Assembly: GCA_024220505.1 (NCBI GenBank)
Contig: JAKZZE010000011.1
Span: 1,364,001-1,428,000 of the forward strand
Direction of reading: 5' to 3'
Source: Rhizopus arrhizus
Lineage: Eukaryota > Mucoromycota > Mucoromycetes > Mucorales > Rhizopodaceae
Length of the DNA stretch: 64,000 bases
Shown: in pieces, positions 17,199-27,456 of the stretch
Numbering within the stretch: position 1 is the stretch's first letter
Layout: every line of letters starts with the position of its first letter
The notes under the pieces: generated by a model
The model's database searches: none
Told to the model about the DNA's origin: nothing
The model's input: only the letters and a program-made list of their open reading frames with translations
Translations under genes and position numbers: made by a program

Positions 17199-18053
17199 AT
17201 GAGTGACAAAGAGAATCAAACAACGGTTGAATTACCAAGACGAGAACGCGTACATAAGACAAAGATAATAACGGAAAAACAGTGCTGACAAATGACTTTA
17301 TTTAGAACCCAACTACTTTAAAAGAAAATGCCATTGCAACAAATAACAATAGTAATAAAAAGGCAAGTGACAAAGTGAATTGTATGTTACTCACAACTAA
17401 CACATTTACAACAGGGGAATGAAAGCCCTACTGAACAAACAAAGTCCACCTTTGATACTTTGAATTTTAAAGTAAGTTTTTTTTTTTATGCCTAGATTAA
17501 TTTGACAACAAAATAACTCTCTACAAAGCCTCTTGATGATACCCAACTTGTACAAAAACACAAAAAATCAAGTTTTACAGTCAACACATCAACTGAACAA
17601 AAAAGAAATGAAGACACGAAAGAAACAGAGCTCGAGTTGAATATTCAACCACTCAAGGTACAACATCGACAGAATAAGGAAGATAGACCCATCTCAAGCA
17701 AAGAAAGACAAGAGGTGGAAGCGTTGAAAGATGAGCTGTTTAAATTAGAAAATGAAAACAAGGGACATCAAGAATTTATAGCCTTGTTGGGTATGCAGAT
17801 TGAAAGTTTACGTAGAGAATTGAATGCAGACAGTCGAAGTGTGCAAGAAATTGAAAAGCAAATTGAGAGTTTATCAGAGGAATTGAACGAATACGAAGAA
17901 TATGATAAAGAATTGACGAGCACTCTGGAAAATAAGAATGAACAGGGAATTGAATTTATGTTGAATATTAAAAAGAAGGATGAGATCATTAGTGATCTAT
18001 TGAATCAATTGTCTGAAACAAAATTTAAAATATCTGAAATACAAACAGAATAA
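17199..18053 (+). CDS. Uncharacterised coiled-coil protein
   Basis: 229 aa from four exons: 17199-17249, 17306-17362, 17415-17471 and 17529-18053. The first 90 residues are polar and charged (begins MSDKENQTTVELPRRER). The last 115 form a continuous predicted coiled coil rich in Glu, Lys and Leu heptads (for example EALKDELFKLENEN and SLRRELNADS). Intron 1 is 56 nt with a CTGAC branch-like site; ignoring it gives a stop. Intron 2 begins GCAAGT, a non-canonical GC..AG intron with an ACTAAC branch site. The family is not recognised; centrosomal, kinetochore or cytoskeletal roles would be guesses. Its 3' end lies 177 bp from the convergent ADH gene, and its last 107 bp are duplicated in the palindrome. 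Confidence 0.75.
17363..17414 (+). other. GC-AG intron
   Basis: The intron begins GCAAGT, matching the U1-complementary consensus of GC donors, and ends ACAACAG after ACTAACAC, a strong branch-site match. Both flanking exons stay in phase (AAK AAG codons then GGG AAT GAA). Confidence 0.7.
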
Positions 18054-18230
18054 ACTTTGCTGTGTGACATAGAAAAGCTTTTAATCTATTTTTTTTTAAC
18101 CATTGGGATGAATGGGATGTAGTGATGAGAAATCAAAGGGATTTTGAAAAAATGAATTATACTTGAAGTTTATTTGTTTCTTCTGTACATGATTAAAAGA
18201 AAATATATATATATTTACAATTACAAAGAT

Positions 18231-19306
18231 TTACTCTTCCTTGGCAATTAAAACAGCTCTATAACGCGTCTTGCTGGCATCACAACGCTCGATAGCCTTA
18301 TGTAACCCATCCAAATTAAAATCGTATTCTTCAATCTGTGGCTTGATATTATGACGTCCAGCAAATTCAAGCATGAGCTCGATCGCATATCTTCCACCCA
18401 CAATAGAGCCTTTGAATGACTTTTGACCACCAAGGATCTCGAGAGGATTCTTGAACTCGACAGAGCTATCGGGAAGACCGAGCAAGATGAATTGACCGTT
18501 ACGCTTCAAAAGGGACATGTAGAGATCCCAATCCAGATTGGCAGAGACAGTGTCCAAGATGAGGTCGTATTTAGAGAGCTTTTCAATAGAGTCAGCAGTG
18601 AACTCTCTCGAGTTTAAAAAGTCGTGTGCACCAAAGCCAAGTGCTTCTTCTTTCTTATCAGGAGAACCAGAGATGGCAGTGACATGACAACCCCATGCAC
18701 GAGCAAATTGAAGAGCCAAGTGACCTAATCCACCGATACCGACAACGGCAACACGATCTGTGGGTCGGATACCAGAGGTATACAGAGCATTAAAGACAGT
18801 AATACCAGCACACATCAAGGGACCAGCATGCTTGGGTTCCAAATGATCAGGAATCTTGTAGACAAAGCTATATGACAGTAAGTATATATATCCTATTTGC
18901 TTTAAAAAAAAAAAGAAAGAGAACTTTACCGACTGTCAGCGATTTGATGAGAGGCGAATCCATTTGAGTTTCCTTCAGGAAACATCTTTCTACTATCACA
19001 ATTGGTATCTACACCCGAATTACAAGAGGGACAGCTCAAACAGGATTCCTTCAAATAGGAACTACCAACCACATCACCCACTTGAATCTTTTTGACATCT
19101 GATCCGATCTGAACAACACGGCCCACGGCTTCATGACCAAGGACAAGACCCTCTTGGCCCATGAAGCCACAGTCTGTGTGACAGACACCACTAGCGAGGA
19201 TCTTGATCAGCACTTCATTGTTGGCAAGTGTGGGTGTTTCGATCGTGGTTTGCTTGAATACACCACGAGTGGCAGTACTGGGGAATTGAATGATTTGAGA
19301 GGTCAT
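18231..19306 (-). CDS. Zinc-dependent alcohol dehydrogenase, left copy
   Basis: Medium-chain, zinc-dependent alcohol or cinnamyl-alcohol dehydrogenase, 337 aa. Exons are 18930-19306 and 18231-18867 with one 62-nt intron. Catalytic zinc ligands are Cys42 (GVCHTDCG), His58 (GHE, 57-59) and Cys145. The structural zinc is bound by Cys89, Cys92, Cys95 and Cys103. The Rossmann motif is GIGGLG (169-174). The SGSPDKKEEALGFGAHDF region is typical of the CAD/ADH6-like branch, which usually uses NADP(H), though cofactor choice is not proven here. Its protein is identical to the right-arm copy at 22947-24022. A TATATAAA box lies about 61-68 bp upstream of the ATG. Three 25-bp repeats sit about 250-330 bp upstream. 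Confidence 0.95.
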
Positions 19307-19366
19307 TGAGTGAAATAGATAAGATTAAAACAATATAAAAATGTGGGGGATCAATGAAACGGCTGG

Positions 19367-19374
19367 TTTATATA
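19367..19374 (-). promoter_or_regulatory. TATA box of left ADH copy
   Basis: TATATAAA on the minus strand, 61-68 bp before the ATG, exact mirror of the right-arm site at 22879-22886. Confidence 0.6.
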
Positions 19375-19558
19375 GTTTTTTTTTTACTTTTATTTTTTTT
19401 TATTTATGTTATTAATCAAATTAAATATTGATCCGGACTTTTGGGAGAATAAATTAACCTGGACAATTATAAATACAAGCGGTATTTAAATGGATTGGCA
19501 TCCGATGATACCATTGGGCCATTGACATACGTGTAGTATGAAAAATAACGTTTTCCAC

Positions 19559-19641
19559 AATATCTTTTATTCTGCTTCAACACAATAGCCTTTATTCTGC
19601 TTCAACACAATATCTTTTATTTTGCTTCAACACAATATCTT
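19559..19641. repeat. 25-bp tandem repeat in ADH upstream region (left)
   Basis: Three consecutive near-identical 25-bp units (AATATCTTTTATTCTGCTTC plus AACAC) and a partial fourth. It is mirrored at about 22612-22694. It lies in the putative ADH promoter and could bind a regulator cooperatively, but no known site is recognised. Confidence 0.85.
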
Positions 19642-19830
19642 CATTTCAAACAAAACAGATAAGACATCTCGTTTCCCACACAATAAAAGCTTAACTCAAC
19701 TCGCAATGAGGCGCAAGTTTGATTTATAATACAAAAAAAAAAAAAAAAAAACAAAACTCACAGCAAGTTACACCGACAGACGTTCGTTTTATCCGCGGTG
19801 TTTACAATCAAAGCAATACAAATTATTTTC

Positions 19831-19933
19831 TGTAAAATACAATACAAATGGACCAATTAGATGTATCCAGTATAACTTTGGAAAAGCAAAGGTTTTAAAA
19901 ACCATATATAGAAAGTCTTACGTATACATTTCC
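19831..19933 (+). repeat. Left terminal inverted repeat of central element
   Basis: Pairs with 22216-22318; positions sum to 42,149. I counted 11 differences in the first 100 bp, ten of them transitions. A 30-bp block beginning GAAAAGCAAAGG is perfectly conserved. Confidence 0.85.
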
Positions 19934-20105
19934 GGAAATAGATTGCACAAATTTAAAAAATCTTTGCACACATAAAAAAATCCAGATTGCTCGAATGAAA
20001 TTTTTAGACTGCATACTAACTGAAATCGCTTTGCATGTCTAAAAAATAAAGACTGCATAGCCTCTGAAATTTTTATTGCACAACTATGCAATCTTTTACA
20101 AAGGT
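19934..20105. repeat. Subterminal GACTGCAT/TTGCAC-type short repeats
   Basis: Short degenerate copies of a TTGCA/TGCAT core recur inside the left TIR, among them AGATTGCACAAA, TCTTTGCACAC, AGACTGCATACT, TTTGCATGTCT and AGACTGCATAGC, ending in the near-palindrome ATTGCACAACTATGCAAT. Clustered subterminal motifs of this kind are transposase-binding sites in several DNA transposon superfamilies. That function is inference. Confidence 0.5.
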
Positions 20106-20109
20106 TCTT

Positions 20110-20469
20110 TATTTAAACAAGCTTGTAGTTTTGAATCTGAATAACAACAGAACCCTTGAAGGTCCTCCGAAAAGACATTGTTACAAGCATCAGTTACTCT
20201 TGTAGTTAGAATTTCCTCCTCAATAGTTTTTCTCTTTTCATCTTACTTTTGACTACAGATCAAAACTGCTCAATCAGATTAAGCTCTGGGGAGTATAGTG
20301 GAAGATATACGCATCCATATCCTCGACTTACACTTAGCTTCGCAATCTGATCTGAATTGTGTATAGAAGCATTATCTATGATAAGATGATGTCCTTTGAA
20401 TTGTTCATGACGGTCCAAGATAAGAATAAAAAGATGTTTGATGGTAATGCCCAATGCTTTTAAAAGCAA
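20110..20469 (-). pseudogene. DDE transposase C-terminal fragment (Tc1/mariner-IS630 type), broken
   Basis: Reads GHHLIIDNASIHNS, then YLPLYSPELNLIEQF, which are the second Asp and third catalytic acidic region of the DDE_3-type transposases. The codon expected for the Trp after EQF is a TGA stop. A one-base shift follows near 20222-20230, after which the usual tail (QGFCCYSDSKL) continues in another frame. The N-terminal half with the first catalytic Asp is absent. It cannot encode an active enzyme. Confidence 0.8.
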
Positions 20470-20519
20470 AGCTGATAAAGAGAAGAGTCAACTTGAAACG
20501 AGATAAAAAAAATCAGTCT

Positions 20520-20860
20520 TATATGATGGTCATGCACTTGCTTCTCTAATTCAGGTCCCATCCTTCCTACTTCAGAGCAAATTCTTTCAACATCATTTGT
20601 CAGAATGAAGACAAGACGATCTAATCTTCTATTCTTGATTCTTTTCAAATAAACTGATTTTAATTGATTATGCCAGTTTTCGATGTAATCATTGGCGCGT
20701 ATATTTCGATGCTCTTCAATTACATATGCTGCAGACCATTTTTTGTAACCTTCTAAAGTAATCCATCTATCCAAGTACTCGACAAACTTTGCTTGGACTG
20801 AAGTCCACTTTTCTCTAAACCGACTTACTTTTTCAACTACGTTGTCGTATTTTCCTTATT
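20520..20860 (-). pseudogene. MULE-like transposase C-terminal fragment
   Basis: The minus-strand frame contains REKWTSVQAKFVEYLDRW, YVIEEHRNIRANDYIENWHN, QLKSVYLKRIKNRRLDRL and VFILTNDVE. The (N/D)-x-IE-x-WH-x-xLK pattern followed by an Arg-rich segment and a D-x-L/V helix resembles the region downstream of the catalytic core in Mutator-like or related transposases. No upstream DDE core is found, so this is a fragment. It seems to be inserted beside the DDE_3 tail, making the element a mosaic. Confidence 0.55.
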
Positions 20861-21239
20861 AAATACATAAATGTCGTGTAAAATGACTCAAGATCTCCAT
20901 GTTATATAATTTAAAACTGCTTCTATATAATACTATGCATTATATAGTCATCAATACACACTAACAACTTTAGTCATTTGACTTGTTCAACTCTGGTTTT
21001 AAAATTGTCAATTTTATAAAATAAGACGTAGTTTGTATTTAATGGGCTCTCTCTCCTGTCTTCACTTAATAAAGAGCTTGAAGAGTCTCATTGATTAACA
21101 AGTTTCCCTTTTTACTTTATTTTAACTTTTAATCGACTACAAACTACACGCCAATATCACATATCTATTAAATTCCAACCGTTCATAATGCTTTAAACTG
21201 TATATTTTCTGTAGCCTCTAAGCACAATAAGTATGTCGG

Positions 21240-21520
21240 TATCTCAAAAAGCACACAAAAGCAATGATTCGAGAATTGGAAGAGAAGTACGATGTTAGAG
21301 AATTAGCTGATTTGGATGATATTGAGAGGTTCGAAGTTGGGAAGCTTAGGCCGATTAACAAAATAATTAATTTATACATTTATTGTTGTTTGTCAACAAA
21401 CGTTAATTGCTTCTACAACTTCAGCTTGCGAAAAAAGACGCTGGAGAAGCAAGAAAGATGGCAATTAATCTGATGTTTGACGAAGAAGGAGATAAAGAAA
21501 AGACTGCCAATCTGTTATAA
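21240..21520 (+). other. Possible small exon pair inside the TIR element
   Basis: A plus-strand frame beginning MIRELEEKYDVRELADLDD IERFE can be spliced, with an intron opening at GTTGGG at about 21334 and closing at CTTCAG at about 21423, to LAKKDAGEARKMAINLMFDE and a stop at about 21520. The product is an acidic helical peptide of about 55 aa. A second open stretch at about 21590-21690 reads EHGSSLSNHYNEDIFTKKFV. The pair could be relics of a transposon accessory gene or captured host exons. No family is recognised and the splice sites are weak. Confidence 0.3.
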
Positions 21521-22215
21521 ATATGTAAAATACCTTCTCAGTCAAGATATGTTGTTGAATTATTACTAATCATTTGCTTTTTTTTCTAAGTTTGAATGAA
21601 CATGGCTCGTCTCTCTCTAATCATTACAATGAGGATATTTTCACTAAGAAATTTGTTACCCCATTACTCTCACTGTTCCTTGAGGAAAGTAAGTACATAA
21701 AGCTCTTTGGGTAAGCATCTCTTGTTAAGAGCCAAGGCAAGTAAAACAGTGTTTTCTAAATGATGTACTCTCTTTATCTTCTTTTTTTAAACAACCACTT
21801 GTTAATTGGATGATGAAGCCAGATACTAGAATACTCTTAATCAGAAATATGCCAAGTCGTTCTGATGATGAGGTTGTTTTACTCTAAAGATACTCACTCT
21901 ACTCAAAGCTTTGTAGTGTTTATATAATATGCCACATTAACATAATTTTCTGCTCAATATACCACGTTTTTTTCATTTTCTACATACAAAAAAAAAGATT
22001 CACTCTCTGTATCCTTTCAGATAGAGTTGATATATTACTACCATCACAATCACTATTTCCGGTGCCGGACTGATTATCCGAGAAGGTAGTACATGTCTTT
22101 TCTCGTGTTTTAAATCTTCTATAAGTCGTTCAGCTTGCATGTTATGTTTAGACTGCTTGCTCTATGTCTTATATTACTATAATAAGAGGTTACTTTTAAT
22201 AATTCCCATAAGTGG

Positions 22216-22318
22216 GAAAATGTACACGTAAAATTTTCTATATATGGTTTTTAAAACCTTTGCTTTTCCAAAGCTACACTGGATTCATCCAATTGGCCCA
22301 TTTATATTACATTTTACA
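22216..22318 (-). repeat. Right terminal inverted repeat of central element
   Basis: Reverse complement of 19831-19933 at about 89% identity, in sharp contrast to the nearly perfect outer arms. Confidence 0.85.
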
Positions 22319-22611
22319 AGCAGATCCTTTAAAGTAATGGTATAACGTAGTCTCTGACGAAAGAAAGAAGAAAGACAAGGAAAGACTCAATTAGTAATCA
22401 AAGGTGAATAAAGAATATGACAGAAAATAATCTGTATTGCTTTGATTGTAAACACCGCGGATAAAACGAACGTCTGTCGGTGTAACTTGCTGTGAGTTTT
22501 GTTTTTTTTTTTTTTTTTTTGTATTATAAATCAAACTTGCGCCTCATTGCGAGTTGAGTTAAGCTTTTATTGTGTGGGAAACGAGATGTCTTATCTGTTT
22601 TGTTTGAAATG

Positions 22612-22694
22612 AAGATATTGTGTTGAAGCAAAATAAAAGATATTGTGTTGAAGCAGAATAAAGGCTATTGTGTTGAAGCAGAATAAAAGATATT
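22612..22694. repeat. 25-bp tandem repeat in ADH upstream region (right)
   Basis: Mirror copy of the three-unit repeat at 19559-19641, about 250-330 bp upstream of the right ADH start. Confidence 0.85.
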
Positions 22695-22878
22695 GTGGAA
22701 AACGTTATTTTTCATACTACACGTATGTCAATGGCCCAATGGTATCATCGGATGCCAATCCATTTAAATACCGCTTGTATTTATAATTGTCCAGGTTAAT
22801 TTATTCTCCCAAAAGTCCGGATCAATATTTAATTTGATTAATAACATAAATAAAAAAAAATAAAAGTAAAAAAAAAAC

Positions 22879-22886
22879 TATATAAA
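22879..22886 (+). promoter_or_regulatory. TATA box of right ADH copy
   Basis: TATATAAA 61-68 bp before the ATG at 22947. Confidence 0.6.
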
Positions 22887-22946
22887 CCAGCCGTTTCATT
22901 GATCCCCCACATTTTTATATTGTTTTAATCTTATCTATTTCACTCA

Positions 22947-24022
22947 ATGACCTCTCAAATCATTCAATTCCCCAGTACTGCCACTCGTGGTGTATTCAAG
23001 CAAACCACGATCGAAACACCCACACTTGCCAACAATGAAGTGCTGATCAAGATCCTCGCTAGTGGTGTCTGTCACACAGACTGTGGCTTCATGGGCCAAG
23101 AGGGTCTTGTCCTTGGTCATGAAGCCGTGGGCCGTGTTGTTCAGATCGGATCAGATGTCAAAAAGATTCAAGTGGGTGATGTGGTTGGTAGTTCCTATTT
23201 GAAGGAATCCTGTTTGAGCTGTCCCTCTTGTAATTCGGGTGTAGATACCAATTGTGATAGTAGAAAGATGTTTCCTGAAGGAAACTCAAATGGATTCGCC
23301 TCTCATCAAATCGCTGACAGTCGGTAAAGTTCTCTTTCTTTTTTTTTTTAAAGCAAATAGGATATATATACTTACTGTCATATAGCTTTGTCTACAAGAT
23401 TCCTGATCATTTGGAACCCAAGCATGCTGGTCCCTTGATGTGTGCTGGTATTACTGTCTTTAATGCTCTGTATACCTCTGGTATCCGACCCACAGATCGT
23501 GTTGCCGTTGTCGGTATCGGTGGATTAGGTCACTTGGCTCTTCAATTTGCTCGTGCATGGGGTTGTCATGTCACTGCCATCTCTGGTTCTCCTGATAAGA
23601 AAGAAGAAGCACTTGGCTTTGGTGCACACGACTTTTTAAACTCGAGAGAGTTCACTGCTGACTCTATTGAAAAGCTCTCTAAATACGACCTCATCTTGGA
23701 CACTGTCTCTGCCAATCTGGATTGGGATCTCTACATGTCCCTTTTGAAGCGTAACGGTCAATTCATCTTGCTCGGTCTTCCCGATAGCTCTGTCGAGTTC
23801 AAGAATCCTCTCGAGATCCTTGGTGGTCAAAAGTCATTCAAAGGCTCTATTGTGGGTGGAAGATATGCGATCGAGCTCATGCTTGAATTCGCTGGACGTC
23901 ATAATATCAAGCCACAGATTGAAGAATACGATTTTAATTTGGATGGGTTACATAAGGCTATCGAGCGTTGTGATGCCAGCAAGACGCGTTATAGAGCTGT
24001 TTTAATTGCCAAGGAAGAGTAA
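22947..24022 (+). CDS. Zinc-dependent alcohol dehydrogenase, right copy
   Basis: Same 337-aa protein as the left copy, from exons 22947-23323 and 23386-24022 with a 62-nt intron of identical length. All zinc ligands (Cys42, His58, Cys145; Cys89/92/95/103) and the GIGGLG nucleotide-binding motif are intact. One synonymous difference was seen (GAATTC here, GAATTT on the coding strand of the left copy). At least 530 bp of upstream DNA is also shared, so both copies should respond alike unless position matters. Read-through of this copy past its stop runs antisense into the duplicated coiled-coil tail at 24200-24306. Confidence 0.95.
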
Positions 24023-24199
24023 ATCTTTGTAATTGTAAATATATATATATTTTCTTTTAATCATGTACAGAAGAAACAAATAAACTTCAAGTATAATTCA
24101 TTTTTTCAAAATCCCTTTGATTTCTCATCACTACATCCCATTCATCCCAATGGTTAAAAAAAAATAGATTAAAAGCTTTTCTATGTCACACAGCAAAGT

Positions 24200-24306
24200 T
24201 TATTCTGTTTGTATTTCAGATATTTTAAATTTTGTTTCAGACAATTGATTCAATAGATCACTAATGATCTCATCCTTCTTTTTAATATTCAACATAAATT
24301 CAATTC
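24200..24306 (-). pseudogene. Truncated copy of coiled-coil gene 3' end
   Basis: 107 bp identical in reverse complement to 17947-18053, the last 35 codons plus stop of the coiled-coil gene. It has no upstream exons or promoter. It marks the breakpoint of the duplication and shows that the outer part of this arm derives from the left locus. Confidence 0.9.
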
Positions 24307-24440
24307 ATGGTTCTTTCGCCTAATTTTTCTAAGCAACCTGATAAAGGTAGACCTTCTATTAGCTCCGTTCGATCGACTATCAGCAATCCTACTACTCCAC
24401 GATACGTTTAACCTTATGTGATACACCTTTCCTACATCCA

Positions 24441-24845
24441 CTTAAAATACTTGCGTATGCGGATGACTTGCTTGTTTTCTTGAGCAATGCCCACTGTCTT
24501 GCTGCAGTCCAATCCTTGATCCTATGCTACAATCAGGCATCCAACGCAAAAATGAACTACAATAAAGCCATTACTTTTTCGGCTCCGGATGTTCCGCATC
24601 TTCATTGGTTGCCTATCTTAGCTTTTCATGGAATTGCTGAGTGGCATGGTTGACGTTCTGATGAACCACTTACCTATCTAGGCTATCCTCTAATCCATTT
24701 GACCACGCACCAACCTTTTTTTTTCAGTCGCATTTGATTGCTAAGATTAAACGGACATGTGATCTACACAAACAAAGGAATTTATCTATTCGTGGTCGAG
24801 CAACCGTTTTAGATACATTGATACCATTGACTTTCTGGCATGTCA
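24441..24845 (+). pseudogene. LINE (non-LTR) reverse transcriptase fragment
   Basis: The frame opens at LKILAYADDLLVFL, the RT palm motif (YADD). It continues with NAKMNYNKAITFSAP, a stop, then YLGYPL and, after a shift, LSIRGRATVLDTLIPLTFWHV. These are consecutive landmarks of non-LTR retrotransposon RTs (motif C, the NxxKs/KT region, LG, and the thumb 'L..RGR..v.n'). At least one in-frame stop and one frameshift are present, and the upstream RT, endonuclease and downstream RNase H parts are missing. It is a dead fragment adjacent to the palindrome breakpoint. Confidence 0.8.
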
Positions 24846-25127
24846 TGCACGTCACCTGGATCAGTCAAGCTAGCCATACAAAATAATAATAGAAATAGAA
24901 ACAAACTCGGTGTTGATATAAACATTCATTTCACTGAAAGATACAAAATAAAAGAAATAAATCAATCGAGGAATGCTTTTCGATACAATTTTACAAGGCA
25001 ATCCGATACCAATTATTATAGAGACAGTTGTAACCAACGCCAAAAGATGTAAAATAAAAGAAAATAAAGTAGATAATATATTGGCTTTAAAGATGTTTTT
25101 ATTTATTTAAAATAAACCTATACGCAC

Positions 25128-25688
25128 CTAATAATTGTTGTTCAAAATATCATCAACCTTCTTGACCTTAGCATAAACGAATTGAATACCGGCAAGGAAG
25201 GCTTCCTTGATTTGCTTGGCCTTGATGATCTTACCATCGTACGGTTGATCGAATGCGTTGACGGCTTCATCGACAACAATACACTTGAAACCTCTATGAG
25301 TGCCAGAGTAAACAGTCGAGTTGACACAGTTATGGATCATCATGCCCACAACAATAAGGGTATCAATGCCCTTGCTTTTGAGGTACTCCTTCAAACCAGT
25401 GCCTACGAAGCCGCTCACCTCGTGCTTGATAAAGATCTTTTCATTCGCTAATGGCTTGACGCTCTCATGGATCTCTACACCGGATGTTCCCGGTTCAAAG
25501 AAATTTAGCTTCTTGCGTTGCTCTTCTGTAGCATGATGGACAACATGAACAATCTCCTTGTTTTCCCTTCTAAACTTTTCCATCAGCTGAGCAATGGCTT
25601 GAGCGGTTTCTACTGGACTGTCAGTAGGAAATCTTCCACCAGGAAAGTAATCGTTTTGAACGTCGACGATAATAAGAGCTTCCTTCAT
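25128..25688 (-). CDS. Isochorismatase-fold cysteine hydrolase (nicotinamidase-like)
   Basis: Single-exon 186-aa protein of the isochorismatase/nicotinamidase superfamily, presumably cytosolic. The triad is visible: Asp9 in VDVQNDYFPGG, Lys88 in FIKHEVSGF, and nucleophile Cys121 in GMMIHNCVNST. The length is close to the usual 180-220 aa. True nicotinamidases carry a metal-binding D-x-H set after the first motif. Here residues 50-55 (VVHHAT) are suggestive, but the H-x-D spacing is not clearly conserved, so the substrate (nicotinamide, ureidoacrylate or another amide or vinyl ether) is open. The start was chosen at MKEALII because a T-rich and A-rich leader without other ATGs precedes it. Confidence 0.88.
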   Translation of the reverse strand: MKEALIIVDVQNDYFPGGRFPTDSPVETAQAIAQLMEKFRRENKEIVHVVHHATEEQRKKLNFFEPGTSGVEIHESVKPLANEKIFIKHEVSGFVGTGLKEYLKSKGIDTLIVVGMMIHNCVNSTVYSGTHRGFKCIVVDEAVNAFDQPYDGKIIKAKQIKEAFLAGIQFVYAKVKKVDDILNNNY

Positions 25689-27456
25689 TTTATTTATTGT
25701 TTTTTTTTAAAATAAAAAAAAAAAAAAAAAAAACTTCATGCGCTCTGATAAAGAGGGTTTAAAAAACCCTTGCTTTATTGTCACTCAATTCCAGGCAGGT
25801 TTGTTGCTGCGATTTATGTAAAATACCATATTTTTTATGTAAGATCTGTACATTTAAAAAAAGTCTCGAAGTCGAGGTTTATTAAGTAGTCTAAATGGAT
25901 AGGAGACTTCAAGTAGAAAGAAAGAATAAAGTAGATAGTTATTCTAGATAAAAAATTAATATTTATGCATATAAAAATGTTAGGATATTTATAGATTTTC
26001 TATATAATAGCCTCAGTAGTTGCGTATTAGTCAAGCAGTACTTATTCCATTTAATATGAAGTGGTTGCCGTAGCAACGACTCGACCTGAATCTGTATTGG
26101 AGAATGAATTGAGGTTCGCAATACGTTTCACATAGAGTAGCCACATCTTCAAGCGGTGGGTTTTGATATTACATTAGGCGGCTTTTTTCAGTCAAAGGGC
26201 GGTTTCTATTTTCAAGAACGGCACAAATGAACAGTAGATAGACGAAATACATAGTTAACATGTTTCTTTATAGATAGTTTAATTGACTCAATTTACAACT
26301 ACTTGCCAAATTATTAAGAATCAATAAAAAAACTAATACGTAATGGCTATGAAATAATAGAATATGTAGGCAAGTCTCCTCTTCAACGATGACTTAGATA
26401 CTAGAACCAGGATTCTTCAAACTATGATTAATGATTTACGTGAATACTCATTTAGAAGCAGAGTTCATGTATCCGCATCTTATTATGCATGTTCTCCTTT
26501 TACTGAAAGAGATTTAAAAAACAATGATGATATACTTCATAGACCAGATAAAATAATAGAGAGCACACAAAGTAAAATAAAAACAGAGAAAAAAAATATG
26601 CAAATTCCAAAAGACCGCTACTAACATTTTATTTGATTAACCACAGACATACCCAAGTATTTGAAATCAGTAATCATGATGTATGTTTGATATCAATCGA
26701 CTTTGCCGAGTTAACAACAAGAACACATGATATAAAACAATTGATGAGAATAACCCCACCATCAAAAGAATTGTCATAGAAACATTTGTTGTTGCTAAAG
26801 AACTCTTTTTGATTCTGATGGTTTAACATAAAATGCTGAGTTACTTGAAAAGTTTAATAGTAGAAAAAAAAAAACCCCTCCCATTACAAAAGATCAAGAT
26901 AACATAAATGGTGTGTAGATCTCTTTTTTAATTATATATGCTAACTTTTAAATAAAATCATACTTTAAAAATTAGCATGATCTATGGTTGATTAACCAAC
27001 AAATTGAAGGTGTTGGCTGTAACAGATTTCAACAGCGCTGTTGAACAACACTTTTATAACCAATAGCCACTTGAAATATAAAATGAATGATTTCAATAAA
27101 AACTCACTCTACTTGCAAGATTTAGTATATAGTCATCGTCTATCATCAAAAGACAGTGATATGAAAAGAAAAAGAAAAATTATGCGTGTCTCCGTATCTG
27201 GCTAAGTTTGAGTAATCAAAAATCATTGATATTCCACACATCCTCATACGATCGTCTTACATGTACGGACGAGCCGTAGGGATCTAAAGTGGGATCTGGG
27301 ATATTTAGCATATAGGTGAAGGTTTGATATCATGTCTGATCACATAAAAGTAAATTCTAATCATTCATTATAAAATACACAGAAACATTGACTTTTTGTA
27401 TGGATATGTGTGTGTGTGTGTGTGATTGAATTTATTTTGTCGAGTAAAAAGAGAAT
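25689..27456. other. Gene-poor AT-rich region, probable transposon debris
   Basis: 1.8 kb with scattered short ORFs, including a 66-codon plus-strand ORF at 26424-26624 with no recognised domain. I could not find LTR or TIR pairs. A (TG)n tract at 27407-27424 lies 30 bp beyond the uL14 stop. Confidence 0.4.
27407..27424. repeat. (TG)n microsatellite
   Basis: Nine TG dinucleotides in the 3' flank of the uL14 gene. Confidence 0.9.

What the first reader, a model, noticed from the sequence alone, without database searches (positions are those of the whole stretch)
17947..24306. Young 6.4-kb palindrome duplicating a zinc alcohol dehydrogenase gene
Two 1,887-bp arms pair at a constant coordinate sum of 42,253, with no indel even in poly-A tracts and only two mismatches noticed. 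They carry identical 337-aa ADH proteins transcribed outward from a 2.6-kb spacer. Both copies keep their promoter, TATA box and 25-bp repeats. This is a very recent inverted duplication (or one held identical by gene conversion) that doubles a metabolic gene and could form a hairpin or dicentric intermediate.
Basis: seen in the sequence. Interest (0 to 1): 0.75.

Follow-up and report, generated by a model that had tools for sequence, protein, structure and literature searches.

The report
Mirror-image alcohol dehydrogenase gene pair
A fungus resembling Rhizopus arrhizus carries two nearly identical, mirror-image copies of an alcohol dehydrogenase gene, and small clues at their inner ends suggest the pair is older than it looks and is kept alike by one copy overwriting the other.

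Summary
The palindrome is real and the coordinates are right: arms 17947-19833 and 22420-24306, 1,887 bp, no indel, two mismatches (18363, silent; 19821), spacer 2,586 bp. The genome is close to Rhizopus arrhizus; one search found no third full-length copy of the arm in it. An identical core with a diverged edge fits an older inverted duplication recently homogenised by arm-to-arm gene conversion better than one young event. In the same genome, an isochorismatase palindrome on contig C34 has the same edge pattern, and there conversion is shown phylogenetically: it shares its spacer junctions with a tandem sister palindrome, yet 34 core sites group arms within a palindrome and 0 group them across. 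The left arm is the source: its outer end lies inside an intact conserved coiled-coil gene, and the right arm carries only that gene's last ~35 codons. A new member of a known kind. Conversion at the ADH locus itself is inferred; reads and sibling strains could not be checked.

The parts
17947..19833 (+). Left (source) arm of the palindrome: last 107 bp of the coiled-coil gene, ADH copy 1, and 527 bp upstream of it
   Evidence: blastn self-comparison 99.894% to 22420-24306, no gaps; pairing at sum 42,253
22420..24306 (-). Right (derived) arm of the palindrome: ADH copy 2 plus a truncated 3' end of the coiled-coil gene
   Evidence: truncated gene end identical to the left 17947-18053
18231..19306 (-). 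ADH copy 1, two exons, inferred 337 aa, zinc alcohol dehydrogenase (ADH_N + ADH_zinc_N)
   Evidence: ORFs; Pfam; homologues; intron inferred from GT-AG and from full-length homologues such as P0001
22947..24022 (+). ADH copy 2, same ORFs as copy 1
   Evidence: single synonymous difference in the second exon
19831..19931 (+). Diverged inward extension of the left arm (89% to 22218-22318)
   Evidence: only two places found in the genome
22218..22318 (-). Diverged inward extension of the right arm
   Evidence: only two places found in the genome
22319..22419 (.). About 101 bp present only on the right side between arm and extension (deleted from the left or inserted in the right); no other copy found in the genome
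   Evidence: alignment
19932..22217 (.). Remainder of the spacer, largely pieces of dispersed repeats and transposon relics
   Evidence: genome-wide repeat matches to parts of it (40 of 227 candidates scored)
19927..20418 (-). Tc1/IS630-like DDE transposon relic in the spacer; its end coincides with the inner limit of the left extension
   Evidence: repeat copies; Pfam DDE_3 on the piece 20263-20487
20541..20847 (-). Transposase-like repeat relic, MULE-like by eye only
   Evidence: repeat copies 75-92% elsewhere in the genome; no Pfam match to it or to a longer copy's frame
20843..21163 (.). About 320-bp dispersed repeat
21190..21775 (.). Dispersed repeat, 69-73% copies
17517..18053 (+). Last exon of the coiled-coil gene, intact; crosses the outer edge of the left arm
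   Evidence: 97% to R. arrhizus P0121, C-terminus aligned in R. stolonifer P0123
24200..24306 (-). Truncated last ~35 codons of the coiled-coil gene in the right arm
   Evidence: identical to 17947-18053 reversed
24307..24883 (+). Flank of the derived arm: degenerate, retroelement-like sequence with a YADD motif (motif recalled)
   Evidence: translation; weak repeat matches (67-72%); Pfam did not confirm a reverse transcriptase
19556..19641 (.). 25-bp tandem repeats upstream of ADH, same in the other arm (22612-22697)

Best explanation
An inverted duplication copied the segment holding the end of a coiled-coil gene, a zinc ADH gene and its upstream region from the left position to the right, facing outward across a spacer now rich in transposon relics. 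The event is older than the arms suggest. The arms once matched at least 100 bp further inward; that edge has diverged to 89% and carries a ~101-bp indel. The 1.9-kb core has since been rewritten by arm-to-arm gene conversion, the last time very recently, with the indel as a plausible inner limit of the tract. The result is two copies with identical protein, probably both functional, evolving in concert. Shown: the arms, the diverged edge, no other copy of it found in the genome, the source arm, and conversion at a second palindrome in the same genome. Inferred: conversion at this locus, template switching as the origin, and function of both genes.
For: Differences are 1 in 1,874 bp of core against 11 in 101 bp of extension (Fisher 4e-14, boundary chosen after seeing the data). 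Scattering the 13 differences at random never left one or none in the core, 0 of 100,000. The extension is in register with the arm: on the left it abuts the arm directly, on the right across one indel. No dispersed copy was found: 2 of 2 candidate places, both here, from either side. Palindrome C on C34 (arms 3,074 bp) has 12 substitutions, all within 37 bp of one end or 161 bp of the other, with 2,876 bp between free of substitutions (one 1-bp indel). Palindromes B and C on C34 share spacer junctions, so the palindrome predates their tandem duplication, yet in the core shared by all four arms 34 sites group arms within a palindrome and 0 group left with left and right with right.
Against: No outgroup sequence of the ADH locus was available, so conversion here is not shown directly. 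The extension is only 101 bp, and a pre-existing short inverted repeat beside a young duplication could mimic it. The genome search skips very common words, so it does not strictly prove the extension unique. There is no clear GC elevation in the arm's upstream part (30.0% against 32.8% in the spacer and 28.5% in one other intergenic stretch), so no sign of GC-biased conversion. Palindrome B on C34 has arms only 96-97% alike and near the inner edge of B and C the site patterns are mixed, so conversion there is episodic.
Confidence: 0.68

Rival explanations
1. A truly recent single inverted duplication. An older short inverted repeat (the 101-bp pair) served as the switch point for break-induced or template-switch copying of the left arm outward.
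For: Near-perfect arms with homopolymer lengths and tandem repeats unchanged; [quoted passage not shown]
Against: The ~101 bp between arm and repeat on the right has no partner on the left, so an extra indel must fall, within the same short time, at the boundary between identical and diverged sequence. Palindrome C on C34 has the same edge pattern, with conversion demonstrated.
Confidence: 0.25
2. Assembly artefact: a fold-back or chimeric join duplicating one real copy.
For: Reads and depth could not be examined; near-identical inverted arms are a classic artefact pattern.
Against: The spacer is 2.6 kb of non-palindromic DNA, the inner edges differ by 11 of 101 bp and an indel, and the outer flanks are unrelated. 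A missed-adaptor fold-back would mirror the spacer too (established knowledge of such artefacts, not tested here).
Confidence: 0.04
3. A transposable element with long terminal inverted repeats that captured ADH (MULE or foldback type).
For: Long inverted arms, and transposase relics in the spacer.
Against: No exact target-site duplication at the outer ends (longest shared direct word 3 bp in 20-bp flanks); no third full-length copy of the arm found; the left outer end lies inside an intact conserved gene.
Confidence: 0.03

Closest known systems
Primate X-chromosome palindromes with arm-to-arm gene conversion (PMC8981503, passages seen)
   Same: Gene-bearing inverted arms of about 99.9% identity or more (median 99.953% in that paper) around a spacer described as structurally unstable; conversion keeps the arms alike
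   Different: Ordinary nuclear contig of a fungus, arms of 1.9 kb rather than a median of 37 kb, no GC elevation seen, conversion at this locus inferred
Inverted copy-number variants by template switching in yeast (ODIRA; PMC10766183, abstract and outline seen)
   Same: Inverted copies of a gene-bearing segment generated by switching at short inverted repeats
   Different: The abstract concerns inverted triplications and hairpin fragments in yeast; here there are two interstitial copies and no evidence of an origin of replication at the junctions
Isochorismatase palindromes on contig C34 of the same genome
   Same: Inverted gene pair, 3-kb arms and a 2.8-kb spacer with a DDE transposase frame (palindrome C), diverged edges and identical core
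   Different: Convergent genes, whole palindromes tandemly duplicated, and conversion there is phylogenetically shown
Near-identical tandem duplicates in Rhizopus oryzae 99-880 (PMC2699053, passages seen)
   Same: Recent-looking near-identical gene pairs in the genus
   Different: Described as tandem; the term 'alcohol dehydrogenase' does not occur in the main text, and the single places with 'inverted' and 'gene conversion' concern transposon detection and a reference title

Membership tests
Palindrome maintained by arm-to-arm gene conversion | Arms far more alike than the age of the duplication allows | tested here: inconclusive
   Core against edge contrast, but no outgroup for this locus
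Palindrome maintained by arm-to-arm gene conversion | Arms group within, not between, genomes or copies | not testable with these tools
   No relatives' DNA was held for the ADH locus; the test was met at the C34 palindromes (34 against 0 core sites)
Recent single inverted duplication | Uniformly low divergence to the very ends of homology | tested here: not met
   89% over the inner 101 bp, unless that stretch is a separate older repeat
Transposon with long terminal inverted repeats | Flanking target-site duplication | tested here: not met
   Longest shared exact direct word 3 bp
Transposon with long terminal inverted repeats | Further copies bounded by the same ends | tested here: not met
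   Two full-length copies among 9 matches, both here
Zinc medium-chain alcohol dehydrogenase | ADH_N and ADH_zinc_N domains above cut-off | tested here: met
   63.0 against 23.5 and 81.8 against 31.8 bits
NADPH-dependent aldehyde reductase Ahr (NF047908) | Curated score cut-off | tested here: not met
   292.6 against 470 bits, although the best NCBIfam match
Assembly fold-back artefact | Absence of long reads spanning both arms | not testable with these tools
   No reads held

The most novel reading that the evidence does not exclude
Rhizopus keeps gene-bearing palindromes across its nuclear genome as a working system: arm-to-arm gene conversion in a mostly asexual haploid both preserves metabolic genes against mutation and doubles their dose, as primate sex-chromosome palindromes do.
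Probability: 0.2. Interest if true: 0.6.

Novelty: new member of a known kind. Interest (0 to 1): 0.38.

Why it matters
Identity between inverted copies is usually read as youth. Here the diverged edge, and a second locus where conversion can be shown, argue that the identical core records the last conversion and not the duplication. If it holds, duplicates in Rhizopus genomes cannot be dated from core identity alone, and the fungus would offer short, gene-bearing palindromes in which inter-arm conversion could be measured directly.

Tried and rejected
Transposon origin of the arms: rejected for lack of an exact target-site duplication and of further full-length copies. The 101-bp extension as terminal repeat of a dispersed transposon: not supported, no other copy found; a single-copy element cannot be excluded. 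Further inward homology: a sensitive comparison of 19931-21200 with the reverse of 21001-22218 gave a best word of 19 bp at E 0.016, which I take as chance. RIP-like decay of the extension: 10 of 11 differences are transitions, but transitions also prevail 3:1 between the C34 left arms of B and C (84:28), so I draw nothing from it. GC-biased conversion: no clear GC elevation. Reverse transcriptase in the right flank: only a YADD motif by eye; Pfam gave a sub-threshold unrelated hit for one of two pieces and none for the other. Papers: seven searches (one search returned none) listed no paper whose title or shown abstract start described a nuclear gene palindrome in Rhizopus; this covers only the open-licence library, and I saw the outline or passages of four papers only (PMC2699053, PMC10766183, PMC8981503, PMC12510652). 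A reference title in PMC2699053 (Skory 2004) names gene conversion in transformed Rhizopus oryzae; I saw the title only.
Full report
Observation. The window lies in a 50.26-Mb, 41-contig genome at C3:1364001-1428000. Named relatives point to Rhizopus: the best full-length ADH match is a protein labelled R. delemar (P0001, 76%), a partial R. arrhizus protein matches 58% of the ADH at 98% (P0016), and the neighbouring coiled-coil gene matches R. arrhizus at 97% (P0121). The palindrome is as described. The arms pair without a gap from 17947 to 19833 and 24306 to 22420, with two mismatches, one silent in ADH and one non-coding. The five mononucleotide runs of 7 or more in the arm therefore have the same length in both copies (ungapped alignment). 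Whole-genome search gave 9 matches to the arm: the two arms, a 73% ADH paralogue on C8, and six short pieces. As a small control, a 60-kb stretch of C1 has many direct repeats but no inverted pair of 150 bp or more; the window has one. The 42 loci held (160,167 bases, partly overlapping, not a random sample) had such pairs only at this locus and in the C34 cluster. These controls say little about the genome as a whole.

(1) Homology does not stop at 19833/22420. It goes on for 101 bp at 89% (19831-19931 / 22218-22318), directly on the left and after about 101 extra bases on the right. Searches with each side found only these two places (2 of 2 candidates each; the search skips very common words). 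(2) The left extension ends where a Tc1/IS630-like relic begins: the relic's terminal sequence, shared with copies elsewhere, starts at about 19927, and a piece of it matches Pfam DDE_3. Other parts of the spacer match dispersed repeats at 69-92% (40 of 227 candidates were scored). (3) The outer edge of the left arm lies inside the last exon of a coiled-coil gene whose C-terminus is conserved in R. arrhizus and R. stolonifer. The right arm carries an identical but truncated piece of that exon, joined at 24307 to degenerate repeat-like DNA. So the left arm is the source and the right arm the copy.

Age against conversion. If the arms arose in one recent event, divergence should be low to the ends of homology. 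Instead there is 1 difference in 17947-19820, and 12 plus an indel in 19821-19931. Fisher's test on 1/1,874 against 11/101 gives 4e-14, and random scattering never reproduced it in 100,000 trials. The boundary was chosen after seeing the data, but the contrast is too large for that to explain it. Two readings remain: an older palindrome whose core was converted, or a young copy that started at an older short inverted repeat. The second must add a ~101-bp indel falling, within the same short time, at the boundary. I put it at 0.25.

A parallel in the same genome. The isochorismatase gene next to the palindrome (25128-25688, Pfam) led to six relatives on C34 (84-85%) arranged as three inverted pairs, A, B and C, within 53.5 kb. 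In pair C the arms are 3,074 bp long, with 12 substitutions confined to the outermost 37 and innermost 161 bp, and 2,876 bp between them without a substitution (one 1-bp indel; 0 of 100,000 random scatters). B and C are tandem copies of one palindrome: the left spacer sides match each other (16/428 differences) and so do the right sides (6/375), while left and right sides do not match. The palindrome therefore predates the tandem duplication. Yet where all four arms align in the core (C34:383337-385211), 34 sites have both arms of B alike and both arms of C alike but different between B and C, and 0 sites have left with left and right with right. Shared changes in both arms of one palindrome need conversion or something equivalent. 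In the innermost 161 bp of the arm the pattern is mixed (4 sites crosswise, 1 of each of the other two kinds). B's own arms differ by 1.9% in that core (36/1,865), so conversion is episodic. Pair A was not used in the site counts.

Function. The protein is a zinc alcohol dehydrogenase (both Pfam domains above cut-off). It is closest in NCBIfam to the NADPH-dependent aldehyde reductase Ahr but well below that family's cut-off. Among the 120 best matches listed, the full-length ones above 48% identity and with a given name are fungi of the Mucor-Rhizopus kind (grouping recalled). Both copies carry the same upstream 527 bp but for the one mismatch, so both are probably expressed; this was not tested. 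A dosage effect is inference.

Verdict. The palindrome is real and biological, and is best read as an older inverted duplication kept alike by gene conversion. It is a new member of a known kind (primate palindromes, PMC8981503, passages). Inverted copies by template switching are known in yeast (PMC10766183, abstract and outline). Interest is moderate, resting mainly on the second palindrome and on the warning about dating duplicates by core identity.

Noticed in passing
G000:C34:338001-391500 (L041, L044, L045, L042, L046, L043): Cluster of six isochorismatase gene copies as three inverted pairs, two of them tandem copies of one palindrome; conversion between arms is visible in site patterns.
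   Followed up: yes
C34 pairs A and B (L041, L042): The spacer next to the left arm of pair A aligns with the spacer next to the right arm of pair B in inverted orientation, while the right outer flanks align directly: a possible spacer inversion by inter-arm crossover.
   Followed up: partly
window 25128-25688: Isochorismatase-family gene next to the palindrome, 84-86% identical to the C34 cluster over about 780 bp.
   Followed up: partly
G000:C1:1000001-1060000 (L047-L052): A 5.6-kb direct repeat at 99.5% with a shift of about 15.3 kb, and many other direct duplicates at 71-95%, in what was meant as a control stretch.
   Followed up: no
window 25852-26127: About 270-bp dispersed repeat with twelve other copies at 79-90%.
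   Followed up: no
window 19876-19914 and 22235-22273: 39 bp inside the otherwise diverged extension are identical in both copies and contain two short self-complementary stretches (by eye); could be chance, a regulatory element or a small conversion patch.
   Followed up: no
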